A stretch of 44,863 bases of DNA from Robiginitomaculum sp. (GTDB lineage: Bacteria; Pseudomonadota; Alphaproteobacteria; Caulobacterales; Maricaulaceae): NCBI GenBank assembly GCA_021776595.1, contig JAJFFP010000092.1, positions 1 to 44,863 on the forward strand, in the 5' to 3' direction. Position 1 is the first letter of the stretch. Each line of letters begins with the position of its first letter. Position numbers and translations under genes: made by a program. The notes beneath the pieces were generated by a model, which had not been told where the DNA came from, did not search any database, and saw nothing but the letters and a program-made list of their open reading frames with translations. This document shows positions 6,763 to 37,128 of the stretch, piece by piece.

Positions 6763-8249
<1,487 letters not shown>

Positions 8250-26423: not shown

Positions 26424-26446
26424 ACCCTCCGATCAAGTCGGAGGGT
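26424..26446. repeat. Inverted repeat, unit 5
   Basis: ACCCTCCGA-TCAAG-TCGGAGGGT, a perfect 9-bp inverted repeat. The TCCGATCAAGTCGGA core followed by GTGACGAAGGG is typical of a widespread alphaproteobacterial REP family. Confidence 0.65.
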
Positions 26447-26491
26447 GACGAAGGGCGGGGTTTGAAATTTAGAATGAGTTTATCCTGTGGA

Positions 26492-26630
26492 TTGACCCTC
26501 AAGGCAACACCAAGGGTCAACAGGTGACCCTTAATGACCCTCATGGTGTCCCTTAAATGTCCCTGAAGTGACCCTTATTACCCTTTTATGGACCCATAAA
26601 TGATGCTTATTACCCCTTAACATCCCTTGG
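26492..26630. repeat. Helically phased degenerate repeat array (about ten TGACCCTTAA-like units)
   Basis: From 26526 to 26630 the word (T)GACCCTTAA recurs with variation. CCC cores start at 26528, 26538, 26550, 26561, 26572, 26581, 26593, a degenerate GCTTA unit near 26604, then 26614 and 26624. Spacings are 9-12 bp with a mean near 10.7 bp, about one helical turn. Another direct copy (TTGACCCTCAA, 26492-26502) and an inverted copy (AAGGGTCAA, 26512-26520) precede the array. It is non-coding in all frames as far as can be seen. The remaining 26631-26800 is AT-rich and presumably holds the promoter of the small lipoprotein gene. Confidence 0.65.
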
Positions 26631-27001: not shown

Positions 27002-28426
27002 TTATGACTGAAACAGGAACGGAGCGATGCTGCGTCTGGTTTCATCAGCATAAAGACGCTTCTGTAAAGGTGGAAAGGCGCGCTGGACACAATCTGGCCG
27101 CTCACACAGGCGGCAGTTCAGACCGACTTTCGTTTCGGTGTCGGCGCGTTCATTATAAAGACCATCCGCATAAATAAGTGCGGACGCCTCTTCAGCCGGA
27201 CAAGCTAGCATGAGCACATGACGGACCCGCCCAAAAGGGTCATCCGGACTTGCGCTATCAATGGCACATGACAAGGTAAAATAACGGGTGCCATCGCCAA
27301 AAATGATAGGTTGAGCAAGGGTTTGCTCGCCCTTGCCCGTGGCTTGCCACAGGGCCAGCCGGGCGCATGAGCCGCCGGTTCTGGCGTAGGCAAAGCCTTT
27401 ATCGCCAAAGCGTTTGGTGATATTACCCGCCGCATCAACACGTAGCATGGAGAAGTTTACCCCGCGCGCGCCCGGTTTTTTCAAGGTGCACAGCCGGTGA
27501 AAAAGTTGTTCCCTGTTGACATTAAAACGGCGGCCAAGGGCCTCAAGGTCATAGCGTAAATCCTTTGCGGCCTTGAGTATGACTTCATAGGGCATGAGCA
27601 GGGCCGCCGCAAAATACTGGGACAGGGCAATACGGTAAAACCGCCTGGCCAGCTTGCTGGTAAGTGCGGTTTCCATCTGCATCTGATCCAGCAATTCCCT
27701 GTGTTCCAGCAAGGCAATTTGTATCGCCAGTTGAAACTGACGCGCCGGGGCGTCAAGCCACTCGCTGAGCAATAACCGCCTGGAATGCCGGTCAAAACGG
27801 CGCAAAGAGCCGCGCATCACTTCGACCGGCAAGATACGGGTGCGCACCCCATGCACTTGCAGCAGATAGGCTTGCAGGCCCGCGCTAATATGGGTGCGAT
27901 CCAAATGGGCTTCTTCAGCAAAAATTTCGCCGGCTTCTTCAAGTTCAGGAAAATAATTGTTATGGTCCTGCAGGAGGTTTCGCACCTGTTGCAAAGGATG
28001 TTCACCCGTATCGGATGTGCCCTGGCGATCATCGAAGCGATCCGCCAACGAGGCCAGATCACTGGCTGTGCCGCGATAGCTCTGGTGGAGCTGGATGAGC
28101 GCCTGTGCGGCGCGTGGATGGGCTTCGGCCAGCTCTTTCAGGTCGTGGACATCAAGGGCAATGCTCTCAATGGCCGGATCGGCTGCAATTTCGCGCAAGG
28201 CCAGCAGCGTGCTCTGGTCTGGCATGGCGGAAAAGGCCTTGAGGTCAAACTCAAAGGTTTCGGCCAGGCGGATCAGAACACGGGCGCTCAACGGGCGCTG
28301 ATTGCGCTCCATCAGGTTCAAATAGCTGGCCGAGACCCCAAGTTCGGTGGCCATTTTGACCTGGGTAAGCCCCAAATCCTTGCGCAGGCGTTTCAGCCGG
28401 GCACCGGCAAAGAGTTTTTTATCCAT
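27002..28426 (-). CDS. ScfR/RamB-type short-chain fatty acyl transcriptional regulator
   Basis: A 474-residue regulator with an N-terminal XRE helix-turn-helix (RLKRLRKDLGLTQVKMATEL, then GVSASYLNLMERNQRPLS), a central IrrE/ImmA-like (peptidase M78) region whose HExxH is not preserved (QLAIQIALLEHRELL), and a C-terminal domain with CRLCERPDC ending in RRSIAPFLF. This is the layout of RamB/ScfR proteins, which sense acyl-CoA or acetate status and control isocitrate lyase and related genes in actinobacteria and proteobacteria. It is divergent from aceA, its likely target. No Shine-Dalgarno sequence precedes ATG 28426; TTTACAA repeats lie there instead. Confidence 0.88.
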   Translation of the reverse strand: MDKKLFAGARLKRLRKDLGLTQVKMATELGVSASYLNLMERNQRPLSARVLIRLAETFEFDLKAFSAMPDQSTLLALREIAADPAIESIALDVHDLKELAEAHPRAAQALIQLHQSYRGTASDLASLADRFDDRQGTSDTGEHPLQQVRNLLQDHNNYFPELEEAGEIFAEEAHLDRTHISAGLQAYLLQVHGVRTRILPVEVMRGSLRRFDRHSRRLLLSEWLDAPARQFQLAIQIALLEHRELLDQMQMETALTSKLARRFYRIALSQYFAAALLMPYEVILKAAKDLRYDLEALGRRFNVNREQLFHRLCTLKKPGARGVNFSMLRVDAAGNITKRFGDKGFAYARTGGSCARLALWQATGKGEQTLAQPIIFGDGTRYFTLSCAIDSASPDDPFGRVRHVLMLACPAEEASALIYADGLYNERADTETKVGLNCRLCERPDCVQRAFPPLQKRLYADETRRSIAPFLFQS

Positions 28427-28430
28427 AATA

Positions 28431-28457
28431 ATTTACAATATTTACAATATTACAAAG
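28431..28457. promoter_or_regulatory. Three TTTACAA-like direct repeats at the regulator start (candidate operator)
   Basis: ATTTACAATA (28431-28440), TTTACAATA (28441-28449) and TTACAAAG (28450-28457) lie 5-31 bases upstream of the ScfR-like start codon, with 8-9 bp periodicity. An inverted relative, GTGTAAAT (28533-28540), lies nearer aceA. RamB-type proteins bind TTTGCAAA-like sequences, so autoregulation and aceA control are plausible. Confidence 0.45.
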
Positions 28458-28574
28458 AATCAAGCATACAAAATCACACATAAACCTCTATTAACTGGCC
28501 TATGAAGCTAAGGATGTTCTATTTTGTCATAAGTGTAAATCAATACGGCCTGGTGACCGTTAAAGGAAATTATG

Positions 28575-29867
28575 ATGAATATACAAGAATTCCAGAAGTT
28601 GGTTCCCGGCGCGCCTGCTGGCCGTTTTAACGGAATTGAGCGCAATTACACCCCGGCCGAGGTGCGGCGTTTGCGTGGCTCTGTGCCGATTGAATATACG
28701 CTGGCAAAGCGCGGAGCCAACCAGTTGTGGGCATTGCTGCAAAGCGAAGATTATATCAATGCCCTTGGGGCCATGAGTGGAAATCAGGCTATGCAAATGG
28801 TGCGCGCTGGCCTGAAAGCCATTTACCTTTCTGGCTGGCAGGTGGCCGCCGATGCCAATGTGGCCGGTGCCATGTATCCTGACCAGTCTTTATATCCGGC
28901 CAATTCCGGCCCGGAGCTTGCCAAAAAGATTAATCGAACCTTGCAACGTGCCGATCAGATCGAATGTGCAGAAGGCGGGGCGGAGCGCGACTGGTTTGCG
29001 CCTATTGTGGCGGATGCAGAAGCCGGTTTTGGCGGGCCGCTCAATTGTTTTGAGATTATGAAGGCCTATATCGAAGCCGGTGCCGCCGGGGTGCATTTTG
29101 AGGATCAGTTGGCCTCGGAGAAAAAATGCGGGCATCTGGGTGGCAAGGTGTTGATCCCGACCCGCGCCCATGAGCGTAATCTTCAGGCCGCCCGTCTGGC
29201 CGCTGATGTGTGTGGCGTTTCAACTCTGGTGGTGGCGCGCACCGATGCGGAATCGGCCAAGCTGATCACTTCGGATGTGGATGAGCGCGATCATGAATTT
29301 ATCGACAGGCAAGCCGGGCGCACCCCGGAAGGGTTTTATCGCCTTAAAGGCGACGGTGTGGCCCATTGTATCAAGCGCGGTCTTAGCTACGCCAAGGTGG
29401 CGGACCTTTTATGGTGGGAAACTTCCAGGCCAAACCTTGAGGATGCGCGGCGTTTTGCCGAGGAAATTCATGCGCAATTTCCTGGTAAATTGCTGGCCTA
29501 TAATTGCTCGCCCAGTTTTAACTGGGAAGCCAATCTGGACAAGGACACCATCGCCAAGTTCCAGCGTGAGCTGGGGGCCATGGGTTATAAATACCAGTTT
29601 GTGACCCTGGCTGGTTTCCATAACCTGAACCATGGCATGTATGAACTGGCGCGCGGTTACAAGGAGCGTGGCATGGCGGCCTATTCAGAATTGCAACAGG
29701 CCGAATTTGCTTCTGAAAAGCATGGCTACACCGCCACCCGCCACCAGCGCGAGGTTGGCACCGGTTATTTTGATGCCGTGGCCAATGCTATATCGGGTGG
29801 TCAGTCTTCTACTATGGCACTGGGCGAGTCCACCGAAAGCGCGCAATTTATCGTGGCGGCAGAATAA
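28575..29867 (+). CDS. aceA: Isocitrate lyase
   Basis: Cleaves isocitrate to glyoxylate and succinate, the first step of the glyoxylate shunt, which allows growth on acetate and fatty acids. The 430 residues contain the signature KKCGH (183-187; catalytic Cys185), the substrate loop segment [10 protein letters not shown], metal-binding [10 protein letters not shown], and [10 protein letters not shown]. The size fits the short bacterial AceA type. ATG 28575 is preferred (AAGGA seven bases upstream); ATG 28572 adds one Met. It is divergent from the ScfR-like regulator and ends at a strong hairpin. Confidence 0.97.
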
Positions 29868-29886
29868 TCCAATCTCCCCAAAGGTT

Positions 29887-29914
29887 GCGGGGCGCTGCAC
29901 AAGCAGCGCCCCGC
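29887..29914. terminator. Strong hairpin between aceA and TonB receptor 1 (possible bidirectional terminator)
   Basis: GCGGGGCGCTGC-ACAA-GCAGCGCCCCGC is a perfect 12-bp stem with a tetraloop, placed between the convergent ends of aceA and the receptor gene. It lacks a T-run on either side, so termination may rely on the stem or on Rho. Confidence 0.65.
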
Positions 29915-29930
29915 GCTTCACCGTATGGGT

Positions 29931-32156
29931 TTAATTAAAATCCACTTTTAGCTCCAGTCCGATGACCCGGCCTTTATTCAAGGGAGCAAAGGTGCCGCCG
30001 CCCAGCACATTTGGCAATTGCGTATCGCCGCCGTGGGTGACTTCGTTGAGCAGGTTTTTGCCATAAAGTGAAAGGGTTATCTGATTTTCGGTGTGCAAGG
30101 AGAGATTGATGTCGAGCATATCAGCACCGTTTAAGGTTCCCAGATTGTTGTCGGTGTAAAACGCCCGGTCGCGATGGCTCAGGCTGGACTGCAAGGTCCA
30201 GGTGCCAACGCCGTTCCATGCTTGCGAGAAGATAAATCCAAGGCTGTAAGTCCAGGGAGCCAGACGCGGTATTTGTAAGGCTTTATCGGCTGCATCAACG
30301 ACAAAATCACCGTTTAGATCAAACAGAACCTGATCATAGCGGCCATTGGTATGACCGATGGAGCCAAGCAGGGTGAGGCGGTCGCTGATATAAAACTGCG
30401 CCTCACTTTCAAAGCCCCAGATCTGTGCATTGGCCGTGTTGCGGATAATCTGCACCACCCCGGCGCGCGGATCAGATAGATTAATCTCACGCTGCATATT
30501 GGAGATGTCATTAAGAAAAAGCGCCGAGTTTATGCGCAAAAGATCATTTGGCCGGGCCTTTACACCCAATTCAAAAGCGTTGACTTTTTCCTCATCAAAC
30601 GGCCCCGGCGCGATAAAGGCAGAGGTGTTGCGTAAATTATAACCGCCGGAGCGAAAGCCGCGTGTCCAGGTGCCATAGACATTCAAATCATCATCCGGCA
30701 CCCAGGTGAGGCCGACTTTTGGCGAAAAATTGGACCAGGAATTCTTGTCGTTAAAATCAAACGGGCAGGTGCCGACAATGACATTGCAAGGGCTGGTGTT
30801 CAAGGTTACGGTGGCCACGTTAACGCGTTTGCGCTCATGGGTGTAGCGCCCGCCAAGAATAAGGTTCAAGCTGGGGTTTAGCGCATAATCGGCCTGTGCA
30901 AACGCACCAATGGTGCTCTGGCGCTGCTTGCCACCACCAAAGAAAGTCAAAAAGCCGTCAAATATGTTACGCGATTCCTGATAGCCCACGTCCTGGGTGA
31001 AATAATAAAGCCCGGTGGTTACATCCAGCCGATCAGCAAAACGTCCGGCATAGCGCAGCTCATTGCTCCATTGCTCTTGCGTGGTGCGGGTGTCTGAACT
31101 GAATAATTCTGCCGGGCTGGCATCAATGTCGGCACGGGTGCGGTTATCAAAATTGCGAAAGCCGAAAATATTGGTAATGGTGCCATTGCCAAGGGCCACA
31201 TCCCAATTAGTTTCAATACTGAACTGATCCCAGCGATGATCATAAAGGCCGGTTTCATTGATGGAAAAATCTAGGCTGTGCCGGTCAAAGCCAATGGCCC
31301 CTGCGGGGATAGGGCCAGCCCCGCCTTCATGCTTTTGCGCGGCCGGACCATCACCTTCGCTGGTGCCGTGCTCATAGCGCAAGGTAAATTCAAGATTGGC
31401 ATTTGGTGTGAATACCAAAGACGGACGCACCATAAAGGTTTTGGCCTTGCCAAAAGCGCTGAACTGATCGGGCTGGCCAAAATTTGGCCCACCTTCATAG
31501 TTTTTGAAATAACCATCATCCTTGTTGTAATAAGCAGAGAGTTTGGCTTTAAGTTTATCCTTTACCAACGGCCCGGACACGGACCCCATCAGATAATAAT
31601 TGCCCCTGGTGCCGCGAAAACCGGATTCGGCGGCCGCCTTGAAGCTCGCCTGAAATTCATCCGTGGGTTTTTTGGTGTTGATCAGCACCGCGCCGCCGGT
31701 CACATTTCGGCCAAACAATATGCCCTGCGGCCCGCGCAGCACCTCAATGCTTTGCAGATCAAAAATATCCAGCACCATGCCAGAAGTGATGCCCATATAG
31801 ACGCCATCAACAAAAACGCCAACGGTGGGGTCAATCGAGGGGATGGAGGAATTAATGCCAAGCCCGCGAATGGAAAAATTGGCTACGCCGCGCCAGGTGC
31901 CAATATCATCCAGCGAAACGTTGGGAATGGAATAACTTAAAGATTCAAGATCGCGCACATGCAGGGTTTCCAGTTGCGCTTCACCAAAGGCCGTAACCGC
32001 CAAAGGCGCGGATTGCAAATCCGTGCCACCGGCTTTTTTGGTGGCGGTAATGATAATCTCATCTTCCAGTGTGGTGCCAGTTTGCGCCATGGCGCTGTGG
32101 GTAAAGGCGGCAAATGCTACCGCAGATAACAGGCTTGCTCTTGCTTGATGTTTCAT
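29931..32156 (-). CDS. TonB-dependent outer-membrane receptor 1
   Basis: A 741-residue active transporter. The signal peptide (ASLLSAVAFAAFTHSAMAQ) is followed by a TonB box-like DEIIITAT. The plug domain follows (LSYSIPNVSLDDIG, SIRGLGINSSIPSIDPTVGV, SIEVLRGPQGILFGRNVTGG), then a 22-strand barrel with the C-terminal GLELKVDFN ending in Phe-Asn. Start ATG 32156 has GAGAG upstream; earlier Met codons give no signal peptide. It belongs to the large sphingomonad-type receptor family whose substrates are often lipophilic or aromatic compounds; the substrate here is unknown. It is closely related to receptor 2 and divergent from aceB. Confidence 0.95.
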   Translation of the reverse strand: MKHQARASLLSAVAFAAFTHSAMAQTGTTLEDEIIITATKKAGGTDLQSAPLAVTAFGEAQLETLHVRDLESLSYSIPNVSLDDIGTWRGVANFSIRGLGINSSIPSIDPTVGVFVDGVYMGITSGMVLDIFDLQSIEVLRGPQGILFGRNVTGGAVLINTKKPTDEFQASFKAAAESGFRGTRGNYYLMGSVSGPLVKDKLKAKLSAYYNKDDGYFKNYEGGPNFGQPDQFSAFGKAKTFMVRPSLVFTPNANLEFTLRYEHGTSEGDGPAAQKHEGGAGPIPAGAIGFDRHSLDFSINETGLYDHRWDQFSIETNWDVALGNGTITNIFGFRNFDNRTRADIDASPAELFSSDTRTTQEQWSNELRYAGRFADRLDVTTGLYYFTQDVGYQESRNIFDGFLTFFGGGKQRQSTIGAFAQADYALNPSLNLILGGRYTHERKRVNVATVTLNTSPCNVIVGTCPFDFNDKNSWSNFSPKVGLTWVPDDDLNVYGTWTRGFRSGGYNLRNTSAFIAPGPFDEEKVNAFELGVKARPNDLLRINSALFLNDISNMQREINLSDPRAGVVQIIRNTANAQIWGFESEAQFYISDRLTLLGSIGHTNGRYDQVLFDLNGDFVVDAADKALQIPRLAPWTYSLGFIFSQAWNGVGTWTLQSSLSHRDRAFYTDNNLGTLNGADMLDINLSLHTENQITLSLYGKNLLNEVTHGGDTQLPNVLGGGTFAPLNKGRVIGLELKVDFN

Positions 32157-32199
32157 TTCACTCTCTTTTTCGGGGTGCAAATGTTTGTTATGTTCAGAT

Positions 32200-32246
32200 T
32201 TGACATGCCCATACCAGAACGGCATTAGGGCATATCAATTATGCCC
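32200..32246 (+). promoter_or_regulatory. aceB promoter with overlapping palindrome
   Basis: TTGACA (32200-32205) is a perfect -35 element; 17 bases later CATTAG (32223-32228) could serve as a weak -10. A perfect inverted repeat, GGGCATA-TCAAT-TATGCCC (32228-32246), starts at the end of that -10, and a further ATGCCC half-site lies at 32205-32210. A repressor bound there would block transcription of aceB. Confidence 0.5.
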
Positions 32247-32257
32247 AGGAAAACGCT

Positions 32258-33859
32258 ATGTCCAATACCAATGCTGCGCTTTTACAAGACATCACAATCA
32301 CCGGTGGCATGACACCGGGTTTTGATGCGATATTGAGCCCAAAAGCACTTGATTTTGTTGCGCAATTACACAGGCGATTTAATCTCTCCCGTCTGAATTT
32401 ATTGGCAGAAAGGGCGCAGCGCCAGCGCCAACTGGATGCGGGCGAAGACCCGGATTTTGCCCAAAAGAGCGCCGATATTCGTGCCGCCGACTGGAAAGTG
32501 CGCCCGGCACCAAATGACTTGCTGGACCGGCGGGTGGAAATCACCGGCCCGGTGGATCGTAAAATGATCATTAATGCCCTGAATTCCGGTGCCAAATGCT
32601 TTATGGCGGATTTTGAAGATGCCTCATCGCCTTACTGGAAAAACATGGTGCAGGGGCAGGTCAATTTACGTGATGCCAATGCCCGCAAAATTGATTATGT
32701 GGATGAAACGCGCGGTAAAGCCTATGCGCTTAACGCGGATCCTGCGGTTCTGATTGTGCGCCCCCGTGGCTGGCATATGGTTGAGGCACATATGCAGGTG
32801 GATGGCGAAGCGGTATCGGCGTCGTTGTTCGATTTTGGGCTTTATCTGTTCCACAATCATCAGGCTTTACAAGCGCAGGACAGCGGCCCGTATTTTTATT
32901 TACCCAAGCTGGAAAATGCGGCTGAGGCCAGGCTTTGGAATATGGTCATACTTCATGCCCAGTCTCTGCTGGGCCTTCCCATTGGCACGGTGCGGGTAAC
33001 AGTTTTGATAGAAACCATTATGGCCAGCTTTGAGATTGATGAAATTTTATATGCCCTGCGCGATCATATTGTTGGTCTTAATTGCGGACGGTGGGATTAT
33101 ATCTTCAGTTACATCAAACGCTTTGCCCGTCGTGCTGACCGTATCTTGCCCGAACGTGCCAATGTGACCATGACCTCGCCCTTTATGCGCGCCTATTCGC
33201 GTTTGGTCATCGAGACCTGCCATAAACGCGGTGCCCATGCCATTGGTGGCATGGCGGCGCAAATCCCGATCAAGGGTGATGAGAAAGCCAATGAAGCCGC
33301 CTTTGCCAAAGTGCGCGCAGACAAAGAGCGTGAGGTAAAAGACGGCCATGATGGCACCTGGGTGGCGCATCCGGGCATGGTGGCTCTGGCCATGGAGGTG
33401 TTTGACGCGCATATGCCGCTGGCCAATCAGATTGAGCGCCTCAATGGCTATTGCGCCAGTGCGAAGGCATTATTGACACCAAGTGCTGGCGAGATCACCG
33501 AAGCCGGTGTTTGCACCAATATTGAAGTGGGGATTTTATATCTGGCTTCCTGGCTGCGCGGGCAGGGTGCCGTGCCCATTCATAATTTGATGGAAGATGC
33601 CGCCACGGCGGAAATTTCCCGCGCCCAGCTTTGGCAATGGCGGGTTCATGGTGCCAAAATGCAAAGCGGCATCATGATTGATGCGCCCTATCTGCAAGAG
33701 CAGTTTGCACGGATTCTGGCCAGGCTTAAAGTCGTTACAGGTGCGAAGGATTGGCAACAAAGCCGCATTGATGACGCGGCAAAAATTATGCGTGATCTGG
33801 TCTTTGTCGATGATTTTGAAGAGTTTCTGACCATTCCTGCCTATGAGTTGATCAAATAA
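32258..33859 (+). CDS. aceB: Malate synthase A
   Basis: Condenses glyoxylate with acetyl-CoA to malate, completing the glyoxylate shunt. The 533 residues fit the A isoform (about 530 residues), not the 720-residue G form. Visible signatures are VRPRGWHM (glyoxylate-binding Arg), LIETIMASFEIDEILYALR, the family signature HIVGLNCGRWDYIFSYIK, and the catalytic Asp in NLMEDAATAEISRAQ. AGGA lies seven bases before the ATG. It is flanked on both sides by paralogous TonB receptor genes on the opposite strand. Confidence 0.97.
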   Translation: MSNTNAALLQDITITGGMTPGFDAILSPKALDFVAQLHRRFNLSRLNLLAERAQRQRQLDAGEDPDFAQKSADIRAADWKVRPAPNDLLDRRVEITGPVDRKMIINALNSGAKCFMADFEDASSPYWKNMVQGQVNLRDANARKIDYVDETRGKAYALNADPAVLIVRPRGWHMVEAHMQVDGEAVSASLFDFGLYLFHNHQALQAQDSGPYFYLPKLENAAEARLWNMVILHAQSLLGLPIGTVRVTVLIETIMASFEIDEILYALRDHIVGLNCGRWDYIFSYIKRFARRADRILPERANVTMTSPFMRAYSRLVIETCHKRGAHAIGGMAAQIPIKGDEKANEAAFAKVRADKEREVKDGHDGTWVAHPGMVALAMEVFDAHMPLANQIERLNGYCASAKALLTPSAGEITEAGVCTNIEVGILYLASWLRGQGAVPIHNLMEDAATAEISRAQLWQWRVHGAKMQSGIMIDAPYLQEQFARILARLKVVTGAKDWQQSRIDDAAKIMRDLVFVDDFEEFLTIPAYELIK

Positions 33860-33893
33860 AAAAGGCGTTGTGAGCAAGTCACAACGCCTTTTT
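33858..33893. terminator. Rho-independent terminator after aceB (bidirectional)
   Basis: GGCGTTGTGA-GCAAG-TCACAACGCC is a perfect 10-bp stem flanked by an A-run (33858-33863) and T5 (33889-33893), so it can end transcription of aceB (+) and of TonB receptor 2 (-). Confidence 0.9.
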
Positions 33894-33913
33894 AGCTGAT
33901 ATGAGAATCAGGT

Positions 33914-36148
33914 TTAGTTAAAGTCGAGCTTCAATTCCAGCCCGATAATGCGACCCTTGTTCAGCGGCGCAAACGAGCCGCCGCCAAGCGTGGCAGGCAA
34001 TTGCGTGTCGCCACCATGGGTCACTTCATTGAGCAGGTTTTTACCATAAAGCGAGATGGTCACATTGTTCTCTGTGGTAAAGCCCAGATTAAGGTCCAGA
34101 ATATCGGCAGCATTCAGCTCACCAAGATTATTATCGGTGTAAAATGAGCGATTGCGGTGCGCATAATTGGTCCGCAATGCCCAGCTTCCAAGACCGGGAA
34201 CTTCGCTGTTCAGGATAAAGCCAACGCTGTAGGTCCAAGGGGCCAGACGCGGGATTTTTAAGGCTTTATCCGTGGCGTTCAAAGCGCCGTCGCCATTGAG
34301 ATCAAACAAAACCTTGTCATAGCTGCCATCAGTGTAACCAACCGAACCCAAAAGGGTCAGCATATCCATGACATAAATCTGAACTTCGGATTCAAAGCCC
34401 CAAATGGTGGCATCGGCGGTATTGCGAATAAACTGCACCACACCGGCCAGAGGATCGGCAATGTTAATCTCCCGCTGCATGTTGGAAATGTCATTATAAT
34501 AGATCGCAGAATTGATCCGTGCCCGGCCATTGGGCTGGCCCTTAAAGCCAACTTCGAAAGAACTGACTTTTTCCTCGTCAAACGGGGTAGGCAGGAAGGC
34601 CGCCGAAGTGTTGCGGAAATTATAGCCGCCGGAGCGGAAGCCTTGCGTCCAGTGACCGTAAACATTCCAGTCGTCATTGGGCGCCCAGGTCAGGCCGACT
34701 TTTGGTGAAAAGTTGGACCAGGAATCCCGGTCATTAAAGTCAAACGGGCAGGTGCCGGTAATGACATCACAAGGAGTACGATTGAAAATCAGCGTGGCAA
34801 TGCTGGCGCGTTTTTTCTCGTGGGTGTAGCGACCGCCAAGGATCAGCGAGACTTGATCGGTCAGGTCATAATCAGCTTGCGCAAATACGCCGTAGGTTTT
34901 TTGCCGTTGTTGGCCGCCACCAAAGAAATTCAGAGCACCAAAGGCGATATTGCGGGTTTCCTGATAAGCCGTGTCCTGAGTGAAGTAATAAAGCCCGGTA
35001 GTAATGTCTACACGATCACCAAAGCGGCCGGCATAGCGCAACTCATTGCTCCACTGGTCCTGATCGGTGGCAAAGCTGGCGTGGAACAGGGCCAGAGGCG
35101 TGGCATCAATATCACTGCGTCCGGTTCCCAGAAAATCACGATAACCAAAAATGTTGGTAATGGTGCCATCACCAAGGGGAATATCCCAGTTCGTTTCAAA
35201 AACAATTTGGTCCCAGTTATTATCGTAAAAGCCGTCTTCATCTATCGAGAAGCTGTCAGAATTGCGGTCAAAGCTGACAAAGGCATTGGGGAATGTGCCG
35301 TTACGACCAGGGTGGTTTTGTGATGCCGGGCCATCACCATTGCTCTCGCCATGTTCATAGCGAAGAATGAATTCAACATTGTCATTGGGCGTAAAGATCA
35401 GGGACGGGCGAACCATCACGGTTTCAGACTGGCCAAAAACGCTGAACGCATCAGGCTGGCCAAAGGCCGGGCCGCCTTCATAGTTTTTGAAATAGCCATT
35501 GTCTTTATTATAATAGGCCGAGATTTTGGCTTTGAGTTTATCTTCAACCAAGGGGCCGGAGATGGAACCCATCAGGTAATAATTACCACCGGTGTTTTTG
35601 AAACCCGATTCGGCGGCGGCCTTGAAGCTGGCCTGAAATTCATCTGTGGGCTTTTTGGTGTTGATCAGCACCGCACCGCCGGTCACGTTACGGCCAAAAA
35701 GGATGCCTTGCGGGCCACGCAGCACTTCTATGCTTTCAAGGTCAAAAATATCCAGCACAACCCCGGCATTAATACCCAGATACATGCCATCAGTGAAAAC
35801 CCCAACGGTGGGGTCAATGGAAGGAATGGAGCTGTTGATCCCCAGGCCACGAATAGAGAAGTTGGCGACACCGGGGGTGGTGCCAATATCATCGAGCGAG
35901 ACATTTGGGATGGAATAACTTAATGATTGCAGGTCGGTGACATGCAGCACTTCAAGCTGCTTCTCGCCAAAAGCAGTAATGGCAACCGGGGCTTCCTGGA
36001 TGTTGACGCCGCCCGCTTTCTTGGTGGCAGTAACGATGATCTCATCTTCAAGCACCGAGCCAGCGCTTTGCGCCAGTGCAGTGCCGGTAAGTGCAAAAGA
36101 AGATGCAGCACATAGCATTGCAATTTTTAGGGAGTTGCTGGTTTTCAT
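33914..36148 (-). CDS. TonB-dependent outer-membrane receptor 2 (paralogue of receptor 1)
   Basis: A 744-residue receptor with signal peptide (KIAMLCAASSFALTGTALAQ), a TonB box-like DEIIVTAT, plug motifs nearly identical to receptor 1 (SIRGLGINSSIPSIDPTVGV, VLRGPQGILFGRNVTGGAVL) and a C-terminal barrel end GLELKLDFN. Divergence from receptor 1 is concentrated in predicted extracellular loops. Both share a Cys pair (PCDVITGTCPFDFND here). ATG 36148 has GAGGA four to five bases upstream. The arrangement suggests a gene duplication around aceB. Confidence 0.95.
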   Translation of the reverse strand: MKTSNSLKIAMLCAASSFALTGTALAQSAGSVLEDEIIVTATKKAGGVNIQEAPVAITAFGEKQLEVLHVTDLQSLSYSIPNVSLDDIGTTPGVANFSIRGLGINSSIPSIDPTVGVFTDGMYLGINAGVVLDIFDLESIEVLRGPQGILFGRNVTGGAVLINTKKPTDEFQASFKAAAESGFKNTGGNYYLMGSISGPLVEDKLKAKISAYYNKDNGYFKNYEGGPAFGQPDAFSVFGQSETVMVRPSLIFTPNDNVEFILRYEHGESNGDGPASQNHPGRNGTFPNAFVSFDRNSDSFSIDEDGFYDNNWDQIVFETNWDIPLGDGTITNIFGYRDFLGTGRSDIDATPLALFHASFATDQDQWSNELRYAGRFGDRVDITTGLYYFTQDTAYQETRNIAFGALNFFGGGQQRQKTYGVFAQADYDLTDQVSLILGGRYTHEKKRASIATLIFNRTPCDVITGTCPFDFNDRDSWSNFSPKVGLTWAPNDDWNVYGHWTQGFRSGGYNFRNTSAAFLPTPFDEEKVSSFEVGFKGQPNGRARINSAIYYNDISNMQREINIADPLAGVVQFIRNTADATIWGFESEVQIYVMDMLTLLGSVGYTDGSYDKVLFDLNGDGALNATDKALKIPRLAPWTYSVGFILNSEVPGLGSWALRTNYAHRNRSFYTDNNLGELNAADILDLNLGFTTENNVTISLYGKNLLNEVTHGGDTQLPATLGGGSFAPLNKGRIIGLELKLDFN

Positions 36149-36363: not shown

Positions 36364-37128
36364 TTGAGCCAGAGCCAACTCTCCCGTAAAAAATATGAGC
36401 GAGATCTGCGCACCTTACAGATCGCGCTGGGGCATATGCAGCGCCGGGGCGTTGAAAAGAACTGGCGCATATGCGTCGTTTTTGAGGGCCGTGATGCGGC
36501 GGGCAAGGATGGATCGATCAAGCGCATAACGGAAAATATGCCGCCGCGCGAAGTGCGAAACATTGCTTTGCCTAAACCCACGGCACGGGATCGTGCCAGT
36601 TGGTATTTTCAGCGCTATGTGCCGCATTTACCCGCAGAAGGAGAGATAACCCTGTTCAACCGGTCCTGGTATAATCGCGCCGGGGTGGAACCGGTCATGG
36701 GGTTTTGTACGCCGGAACAGACGCAGGTTTTTCTGACCGCCGCACCGCAATTTGAAGAAATGTTGGCCGAAGACGGCATAGTGCTGCTTAAATACTGGCT
36801 GGATATACCCAAAGCGGTTCAGCACAAGCGTCTGGAAAAACGCAAAAACGATCCTCTGAAAACCTGGAAGCTCAGCCCGTTGGATGCCTATGCGCAATCC
36901 CGCTGGGATGCCTATAGCGAGGCGCGCAATACCATGTTGCGGCGCACCGATCACGGGCTGGGCAAATGGAATATTGTTCAGGCCAGTGACAAGAAAATGG
37001 CGCGTCTGGAAATCATCCGGGATTTACTGCACAAGCTGGCACCTGACCTTCTGGATCATCCCGTTGACCGCAAAATTGTGCAGGAATTTACGCCCAAACA
37101 AATTGCCGATGGCACACTGGCCCCATAA
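36364..37128 (+). CDS. ppk2: Polyphosphate kinase 2 family protein
   Basis: A class I PPK2 enzyme that transfers phosphate between polyphosphate and nucleoside diphosphates, restoring ATP or GTP from polyphosphate. The 254 residues show Walker A FEGRDAAGKDGSIKRIT (from 40), RNIALPKPTARD, WYFQRYVPHLP, the lid-region LFNRSWYNRAGVEPVMGF, and a C-terminal WNIVQASDKKMARLEIIRDL. In the Walker B motif (usually FDRSWYNRAG) Asn99 replaces Asp; this may be a natural subfamily feature. The start is TTG, supported by AGGGGG six bases upstream. The 182-bp upstream gap also holds a GCCAA-TT-TTGGC palindrome (36232-36243). Confidence 0.92.
   Translation: MSQSQLSRKKYERDLRTLQIALGHMQRRGVEKNWRICVVFEGRDAAGKDGSIKRITENMPPREVRNIALPKPTARDRASWYFQRYVPHLPAEGEITLFNRSWYNRAGVEPVMGFCTPEQTQVFLTAAPQFEEMLAEDGIVLLKYWLDIPKAVQHKRLEKRKNDPLKTWKLSPLDAYAQSRWDAYSEARNTMLRRTDHGLGKWNIVQASDKKMARLEIIRDLLHKLAPDLLDHPVDRKIVQEFTPKQIADGTLAP

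What the first reader, a model, noticed from the sequence alone, without database searches (positions are those of the whole stretch)
27002..36148. Glyoxylate-shunt genes interleaved with two paralogous TonB receptors beside a ScfR/RamB-type regulator
The order is regulator(-), aceA(+), receptor(-), aceB(+), receptor(-). Glyoxylate-shunt genes are usually adjacent or scattered, not alternated with outer-membrane receptors. The context suggests the receptors import a substrate that feeds acetyl-CoA (fatty acids, short-chain acids, lipids or polyesters) and are controlled with the shunt.
Basis: partly seen in the sequence, partly recalled or inferred. Interest (0 to 1): 0.62.

Follow-up and report, generated by a model that had tools for sequence, protein, structure and literature searches.

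The report
Outer-membrane receptors at a glyoxylate-shunt locus
A common bacterial gene set for living on acetate and fatty acids has, in one family of bacteria, picked up genes for outer-membrane import receptors, and in this genome a duplicated receptor gene sits between the two enzyme genes; this hints at what the receptors carry but does not prove it.

Summary
The observed order is real: ScfR/RamB-like regulator(-), aceA(+), TonB-dependent receptor TB1(-), aceB(+), receptor TB2(-). The regulator is divergent from aceA in 69 of 69 aceA loci found in the family, and aceB usually follows aceA on the same strand. TB1 between them occurs in only 4 of 69 loci, all in this genus; TB1 and TB2 look like a within-genus duplication. 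The link of receptors with the shunt is wider: the TB1/TB2 family (R1) or a second family (R2) is at 29 of 69 loci, in six genera, and linked R1 genes do not form one clade. Elsewhere a minority of R1 homologues sit in acyl-CoA-degradation clusters, which favours a substrate feeding acetyl-CoA. Control by the same regulator is not supported: its operator is found before regulator/aceA but not convincingly before TB1, TB2, R2 or aceB. In two other genera R1 and R2 share a promoter element that is nearly private to them, but the window's receptors lack it. Substrate and expression are untested. Verdict: a new variant of a known locus, of moderate interest.

The parts
27002..28426 (-). ScfR/RamB-like transcriptional regulator (HTH + Peptidase_M78 + ScfRs)
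   Evidence: Pfam PF09856 149.6 bits, PF06114 80.9, PF01381 45; NCBIfam RamB NF038139 350.6 bits, below its cut-off of 700; divergent from aceA in 69 of 69 family loci
28441..28455 (+). core of the predicted regulator operator (TTTACAAnnTTACAA; a further half-site TTTACAA precedes it at 28432-28438)
   Evidence: matrix built from the regulator-aceA gaps of 69 loci, best score 26.6 bits here; only exact match to the core pattern in the genome
28572..29867 (+). aceA, isocitrate lyase (431 aa)
   Evidence: PRK15063 733.4 bits, cut-off 562; the only place in the genome matched by the Pfam ICL family
29868..29930 (.). strong hairpin (-38 kcal/mol for the gap) between convergent aceA and TB1, possible terminator
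   Evidence: ViennaRNA fold; not reported as terminator-like by the consensus scan, so tentative
29931..32156 (-). TB1, TonB-dependent receptor of family R1 (741 aa from the internal start)
   Evidence: Plug 54.9 bits and barrel 137.6 bits; TB1 clade in trees
32157..32257 (.). short divergent gap expected to hold the promoters of TB1 and of aceB
   Evidence: sequence; no significant regulator operator here
32258..33859 (+). aceB, malate synthase A (533 aa)
   Evidence: TIGR01344 750.4 bits, cut-off 594.5
33859..33893 (.). terminator-like hairpin between convergent aceB and TB2
   Evidence: 15-pair stem, T tail; fold -25 kcal/mol for the gap
33914..36148 (-). TB2, TonB-dependent receptor of family R1 (744 aa)
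   Evidence: Plug 55.3 bits and barrel 146.6 bits; 3' neighbour of aceB in 7 genomes of the genus
36364..37128 (+). PPK2 polyphosphate kinase, flanking gene divergent from TB2 (context)
   Evidence: TIGR03707 322.5 bits, cut-off 301.8

Best explanation
This is the ordinary alphaproteobacterial RamB-type glyoxylate-shunt module (regulator, aceA, aceB) to which TonB-dependent receptors have been added. SHOWN BY SEQUENCE: the regulator-aceA pair with its operator motif is the fixed core; a receptor of family R1 lies near aceB in several genera; in part of this genus there are two R1 copies, one of which (TB1) lies between aceA and aceB, so that aceB now starts from a gap shared with TB1. INFERRED: the two copies arose by duplication within the genus. 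INFERRED: the receptors import an organic, probably acyl- or isoprenoid/lipid-type substrate whose breakdown yields acetyl-CoA, so that cells using it also need the shunt, and linkage is favoured for that reason. INFERRED: the receptors are switched by their own promoter elements and regulator rather than by the RamB-like protein.
For: Census of all 69 aceA loci found among 137 family genomes: regulator divergent from aceA in 69 of 69, aceB in the fetched stretch in 65 of 69, R1 and/or R2 receptor in 29 of 69 (15 R1, 20 R2, 6 both; R1 counted at 50% identity or more, R2 at 47% or more), in genera g1, g4, g5, g13, g14, g15. R1 within 10 kb of aceA in 15 of the 24 genomes with both. Linked R1 genes do not form one clade (AU p = 0.003), which suggests repeated recruitment. 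TB1s and TB2s form two supported clades inside the genus. At least three acyl-CoA-catabolism gene families lie within 8 kb of 5 of 33 R1-like genes but 0 of 68 other TonB receptors; named examples in Marinicaulis, Sphingopyxis and Haliea. Genes like methylmalonyl-CoA mutase (below the curated cut-off) lie next to R1 in G024 and about 5 kb away in G068. In g5/g15 a promoter element is shared by R1 and R2.
Against: 40 of 69 aceA loci have no R1/R2 in the fetched stretch (some are cut by contig ends); g7 and g9 genomes hold R1 or R2 homologues elsewhere. Only 5 of 33 R1-like loci are in acyl-CoA clusters at the stricter count, two of them nearly the same locus, and the seed proteins came from such loci; at one family or more the counts are 12 of 33 and 12 of 68. 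The four glyoxylate-locus R1 genes in that test (G062, G068, G073, G082) have none of the acyl-CoA families within 8 kb. G009, of this genus, has an R1 of only about 55% identity that falls in the other part of the tree. No expression or transport data. The shared promoter element is not upstream of TB1/TB2 in the window.
Confidence: 0.5

Rival explanations
1. The receptors take up ferric siderophores or haem; they travel with the shunt because iron limitation induces the glyoxylate shunt in some bacteria.
For: Nearest solved structures by sequence and by fold are mostly siderophore/haem receptors, FyuA first, then FoxA by fold and PhuR by sequence. NCBIfam TonB-siderophor matches at 131.6 and 136 bits. 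A paper states that Fe limitation induces the shunt in model bacteria (PMC6618146, passages).
Against: The NCBIfam matches are well below the cut-off (223.5). The fold is shared by TonB receptors of other substrates too (PqqU, OprC are in the same list). No Fur-box-like site exceeds shuffles upstream of TB1, TB2/R1 or R2 (0 of 40 at p<0.05 for two consensus patterns recalled from memory; TB2 of the window is borderline at p=0.05). Homologues occur in acyl-CoA clusters.
Confidence: 0.17
2. Chance and hitch-hiking: the spot 3' of aceB is a permissive insertion site where receptors happen to settle, without functional link.
For: Two distinct receptor families, an unrelated 214-aa ORF (G004, between aceA and TB1) and variable flanks are found at the locus; TonB receptors are numerous (18 Plug-domain matches in this genome).
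Against: The same two orthologous receptor families recur; about 0.2 co-locations were expected for R1 against 15 seen (related genomes, so no p-value). In g14 linkage is kept although the receptors lie on the regulator's side in four of six genomes. R1 and R2 share a near-private promoter element in g5/g15.
Confidence: 0.23
3. One reading: the ScfR/RamB-like regulator directly controls the receptors together with aceA and aceB.
For: Adjacency; RamB controls the shunt in Paracoccus denitrificans (PMC10370305, passages). A weak half-site-like block is conserved upstream of TB2 in the genus. With the long matrix 2 of 14 TB2/R1, 1 of 5 TB1, 2 of 21 R2 and 3 of 65 aceB stretches reach p<0.05; the TB2 of G006 has p=0.015 at that block.
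Against: With the long and the short matrix, p<0.01 for the regulator/aceA gap in 69 and 62 of 69 loci (the matrix was made from these gaps), but in 0 of 14 TB2/R1, 0 of 5 TB1, 0 of 21 R2 and 0 of 65 aceB upstream stretches. Control genes reach p<0.05 as often (MSCS 1 of 6, APC 2 of 6, PPK2 0 of 6). The exact core occurs once in the genome.
Confidence: 0.1

Closest known systems
RamB (ScfR) - malate synthase - isocitrate lyase locus of Paracoccus denitrificans Pd1222 (PMC10370305)
   Same: ScfR-type regulator in reverse orientation directly upstream of the two shunt genes, with a conserved operator in the gap (passages read)
   Different: There the malate synthase gene comes first; here aceA is first and TonB receptors are interleaved/adjacent. 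The paper describes two boxes separated by 18 bp; the motif found here is a run of TTACAA-like half-sites spaced 8-9 bases. Whether receptors lie near the Paracoccus locus was not looked at.
Caulobacter crescentus aceA (CC_1764) - aceB (CC_1765) (PMC4551563)
   Same: aceA and aceB close together and both strongly induced in stationary phase (passages)
   Different: the passages name a hypothetical ORF after aceA and no receptor between the two; aceA and aceB are not co-transcribed there
TonB-dependent receptors of degradative clusters, e.g. EdcT for oestrogen uptake in Novosphingobium tardaugens (PMC7793797)
   Same: A TonB receptor encoded beside catabolic genes that include an acyl-CoA dehydrogenase and MaoC hydratases, and implicated in uptake of a hydrophobic carbon source (passages); a plausible model of function
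   Different: R1 was not compared with EdcT itself. The 68 more distant receptors of the named set are 25-37% identical to R1. Substrate of R1 unknown.

Membership tests
ScfR family regulators | HTH + IrrE-like (Peptidase_M78) + ScfRs C-terminal domains | tested here: met
   all above Pfam gathering scores
RamB equivalog NF038139 (acetate metabolism regulator) | score above the curated cut-off of 700 bits | tested here: not met
   350.6 bits over the full model: a relative, not a member of that equivalog
RamB-controlled glyoxylate locus | regulator divergent from the first shunt gene with a conserved motif in the gap | tested here: met
   divergent in 69 of 69 loci; a motif match in every gap, 10 to 31 bits
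RamB-controlled glyoxylate locus | regulator binds the operator and responds to CoA esters | not testable with these tools
   needs binding assays
TonB-dependent receptors | Plug domain followed by TonB-dependent beta-barrel | tested here: met
   TB1 and TB2 both; AlphaFold model of TB2, mean pLDDT 70.3, matches FyuA, FoxA, FhuA
TonB-dependent siderophore receptors (TIGR01783) | score above the curated cut-off of 223.5 bits | tested here: not met
   131.6 and 136 bits
TonB receptors for acyl/lipid/steroid-type substrates | uptake of such a substrate | not testable with these tools
   only neighbourhood evidence

The most novel reading that the evidence does not exclude
In this family the glyoxylate-shunt locus repeatedly recruits outer-membrane receptors. 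Two distinct receptor families (R1, R2) form with it a functional unit for an acetyl-CoA-yielding substrate, and in two genera they are jointly run by a dedicated, still unknown regulator through a near-private promoter element (TGCAACRSTTTYRYRAA), separate from the RamB-type control of aceA. In this genus a receptor duplication cut aceB off from aceA and put it beside a receptor promoter.
Probability: 0.35. Interest if true: 0.55.

Novelty: new variant of a known kind. Interest (0 to 1): 0.42.

Why it matters
Many TonB receptors of carbon-eating Alphaproteobacteria have no known substrate (general knowledge, not from a call). A recurrent tie between two receptor families and acetyl-CoA assimilation narrows the search to substrates that enter as acetyl-CoA, and the shared R1/R2 promoter element offers a handle on their regulator. 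If wrong (iron uptake or hitch-hiking), the same tests would show it.

Tried and rejected
Regulator control of the receptors: tested with a 27-column and a 15-column matrix from the 69 regulator-aceA gaps; no receptor or aceB upstream stretch reached p<0.01. The shuffles are first-order resamplings (200-300 copies), so p-values are rough.

Remnant of aceB between aceA and TB1 in G004 (as a tandem duplication of aceB-TB2 might leave): none found; the gap holds a 214-aa ORF that matches none of the window's proteins tested.

G007 as a TB1/TB2 hybrid formed by a deletion that removed aceB: not supported; 26 of 33 diagnostic sites are TB1-like, 4 TB2-like.

Broken contigs joined by end overlap in G001 and G016: no overlap found.

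Fur boxes upstream of receptors: none significant (patterns recalled from memory).

Alkane hydroxylase among R1 neighbours in G037/G041: the neighbour is in the Pfam FA_desaturase family (tested for G041) but has no NCBIfam match at E<=1e-20, so not claimed.

Structure as a guide to substrate: the model returns TonB receptors of several substrates.

One Sphingomonas plasmid aceA has the regulator and no annotated receptor within 12 kb.
Full report
OBSERVATION. The regulator carries the three ScfR domains but scores 350.6 bits against the RamB equivalog's cut-off of 700. aceA and aceB exceed their equivalog cut-offs. TB1 and TB2 are Plug-plus-barrel receptors, 71-72% identical.

WHAT IS ORDINARY. 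I searched 137 genomes of the family for this aceA: 69 have it. I fetched the surroundings of all 69 (68 stretches plus the window; several are cut by contig ends) and mapped regulator, aceA, aceB and receptors in each. The regulator lies divergent next to aceA in 69 of 69. aceB is in the fetched stretch, on the same strand as aceA, in 65 of 69: within about 1 kb behind it in 61 and behind TB1 in four. The exceptions are G001 (aceB on another contig), G007 (no malate synthase found in a genome 70% complete), and G014 and G156, whose stretches end soon after aceA. The arrangement of an ScfR regulator upstream of shunt genes is published for Paracoccus denitrificans (PMC10370305, passages), and a Sphingomonas plasmid has regulator-aceA too. 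So the core is known.

WHAT IS SPECIAL HERE. TB1 between aceA and aceB is found in 4 of 69 loci (window, G004, G006, G010); G007 has aceA, TB1 and then PPK2. TB2 follows aceB in seven genomes of the genus (window, G002, G004, G006, G010, G012, G017). G003 has neither. Trees put TB1s and TB2s (with G001) in two supported clades; the single receptor of G016 is unresolved beside them and the next outgroup is G044 of another family. The simplest reading is one duplication within the genus followed by losses. G009, of the same genus, has a different R1 (about 55% identical) that falls in the other part of the tree. With TB1 in place, aceB no longer follows aceA directly; a strong hairpin separates aceA from TB1 and aceB and TB1 share a gap of about 100 bases.

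THE LINK IS WIDER THAN THE INTERLEAVING. R1 (the TB1/TB2 family) was found at E<=1e-150 in 35 of 137 genomes, of which 24 also have aceA. In 15 of these 24 R1 is within 10 kb of aceA (eight of the genus, four of g5, two of g14, one of g15); four have R1 and aceA on different contigs (G001, G009, G016, G101), and in five (g9, 48-50% identity) R1 is also on a different contig. For scale, 20 kb out of 3 Mb would give about 0.16 by chance (my estimate, ignoring kinship). A second receptor family, R2 (about 25% identical to R1; cluster 1), is at the locus in 20 of 69 (47% identity or more). R2 was found at E<=1e-120 in 53 of 137 genomes, 50 of them with aceA, so 20 of 50 are linked; among R2 of at least 60% identity to the query, 17 of 22 are within 10 kb and two more lie 18 and 23 kb away (G162, G026). 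R1 or R2 is at 29 of 69 loci. In five of the six g14 genomes a receptor is at the locus: on the regulator's side in four and 3' of aceB in G100. The linked R1 genes are not one clade: holding 20 of them together against 12 others costs 60 log-likelihood units, AU p = 0.003 (clade named after the first tree, and three of the 20 rows are linked only by assumption). This suggests repeated recruitment, although an old linkage with loss of aceA in other genera, or transfer, is not excluded.

IS THE RECEPTOR UNDER THE SAME REGULATOR? I built a matrix from the regulator-aceA gaps; its centre is TTTACAAnnTKACAA-like and every one of the 69 gaps has a match, from 10 to 31 bits. Scored against shuffles, the gap reaches p<0.01 in 69 of 69 (long matrix) and 62 of 69 (short matrix), partly by construction since the matrix was made from these gaps; 0 of 14 TB2/R1, 0 of 5 TB1, 0 of 21 R2, 0 of 65 aceB and 0 of 6 PPK2 upstream stretches reach p<0.01. 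At p<0.05 the long matrix gives 2 of 14, 1 of 5, 2 of 21, 3 of 65 and 0 of 6, against 1 of 6 MSCS and 2 of 6 APC controls. The exact core occurs once in the whole genome. A weaker conserved block upstream of TB2 in the genus resembles two half-sites and gives the best TB2 score (G006, p=0.015), but it is not significant in the others. Direct regulator control of the receptors is therefore not supported.

A DIFFERENT SHARED ELEMENT. A word count over 40 receptor upstream stretches showed, among other over-represented words, ACTGTTGC and AACTGTTG in 12 of 40 each against 0.3 in shuffles. Laid out, they give TGCAACAGTTT-like sites 169-213 bases before the start of R1 and R2, on the same strand, in g5 and g15: at least 10 of 11 core letters in 5 of 5 R1 and 6 of 14 R2 genes there, 9 of 11 at the same place in five more R2, and 8 of 11 in the second R2 copy of three loci. 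The R2 genes of g4 and g13 lack it, and of the g14 receptors examined only the R2 of G100 has 9 of 11 at that place; 9 of 11 alone is not discriminating, as the window's receptors reach it on the other strand. In eight whole genomes there are 14 sites with at most one mismatch to TGCAACRSTTTYRYRAA: nine lie upstream of R1 or R2 in the six g5/g15 genomes; one is inside an ORF of G159; four are in the window's own genome, of which three are inside ORFs and one was not examined; G025 has none. The pattern was derived from these same promoters, so their presence is by construction; their near-uniqueness in those genomes is not. At up to two mismatches there are 6-14 sites in each of the other seven genomes and 35 in the window's, against 2-8 and 15 for the reversed pattern, and one recurrent two-mismatch site looks like a tRNA sequence (my reading). 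A shorter form of the element is in 0 of 69 aceA and 0 of 65 aceB upstream stretches, and no site with at most two mismatches is upstream of TB1 or TB2 in the window.

WHAT MIGHT THE RECEPTORS CARRY? R1 homologues in named genomes (44-53% identity) include several inside acyl-CoA-degradation clusters: Marinicaulis flavus, two Sphingopyxis MAGs (nearly the same locus) and Haliea sp. (gene names there are my reading of ORFs), and, unnamed, G057 (acyl-CoA ligase above its cut-off; acyl-CoA dehydrogenases by matches below cut-off). With seed proteins from such loci, at least three acyl-CoA gene families lie within 8 kb in 5 of 33 R1-like loci and 0 of 68 loci of other TonB receptors; at least one in 12 of 33 and 12 of 68. 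The seeds came from these very loci, and the four glyoxylate-locus R1 genes in that test have none, so this is suggestive only. Genes like methylmalonyl-CoA mutase (below cut-off) lie beside R1 in G024 and about 5 kb from it in G068; in G001 aceA is followed by an acetoacetyl-CoA ligase (above cut-off) and a symporter-like gene. Uptake of a hydrophobic carbon source by a TonB receptor beside catabolic genes has a precedent in EdcT (PMC7793797, passages). The fold model (mean pLDDT 70.3) matches siderophore receptors best, among receptors of other substrates.

RIVALS. Iron uptake is a serious rival because iron limitation can induce the shunt (PMC6618146, passages), but siderophore-family cut-offs are not met and no Fur-like site stands out. 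Pure hitch-hiking is possible but has to explain recurrent linkage of the same two receptor families and their shared element.

PRINT. Full-text searches for TonB receptors with isocitrate lyase/malate synthase or glyoxylate listed no paper whose title or abstract start describes this linkage. The library lacks most subscription journals, only the top of one list was shown (12 of 35), and of the papers listed I read passages of two (PMC4551563; PMC6618146).

VERDICT. A known module with a family-specific addition of receptors; new variant, moderate interest.

Noticed in passing
L038 (G007:C4:5028-24311): aceA is followed by TB1 and PPK2 with aceB and TB2 missing; no malate synthase found in this 70%-complete genome.
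   Followed up: partly
L037 (G004), about 7480-8124 in aceA orientation: A 214-aa ORF, unrelated to the window's proteins tested, sits between aceA and TB1, showing that the gap is open to insertion.
   Followed up: partly
L040 (G010:C6:158496-160733): TB2 of this relative carries one in-frame TAG: decaying gene or sequencing error.
   Followed up: no
window 26426-26450: A 25-base palindrome-like sequence with 8 matches (up to 3 mismatches, this one included) in the genome and none of the reversed control: a dispersed REP-like element.
   Followed up: partly
window 26493-26578: Short irregular repeats of TGACCCT-type words in the gap between the MscS-like gene and the regulator; meaning unknown.
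   Followed up: no
L041 (G001:C232:1-6281): aceA is followed by an acetoacetyl-CoA ligase and a sodium/solute-symporter-like gene on the other strand instead of aceB.
   Followed up: partly
L111 and L043 (G016 contigs C187 and C23): The ends of the two contigs seem to hold the two parts of a glyoxalase-like gene, so aceB and R1 may be linked there too; my reading of the contig ends printed, no overlap found.
   Followed up: partly
L118 5128-8533, L117 11055-14353, L114 2175-5501: In three g5 genomes R1 is flanked by the same two genes; in L118 they are a Peptidase_S9 protein and a protein without any Pfam or NCBIfam match.
   Followed up: partly
g9 loci such as L230, L232, L237, L240: A different TonB receptor (27-33% identical to R2) shows about 7 kb upstream of aceA, at the edge of the fetched stretch, in 9 of 19 g9 loci.
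   Followed up: no
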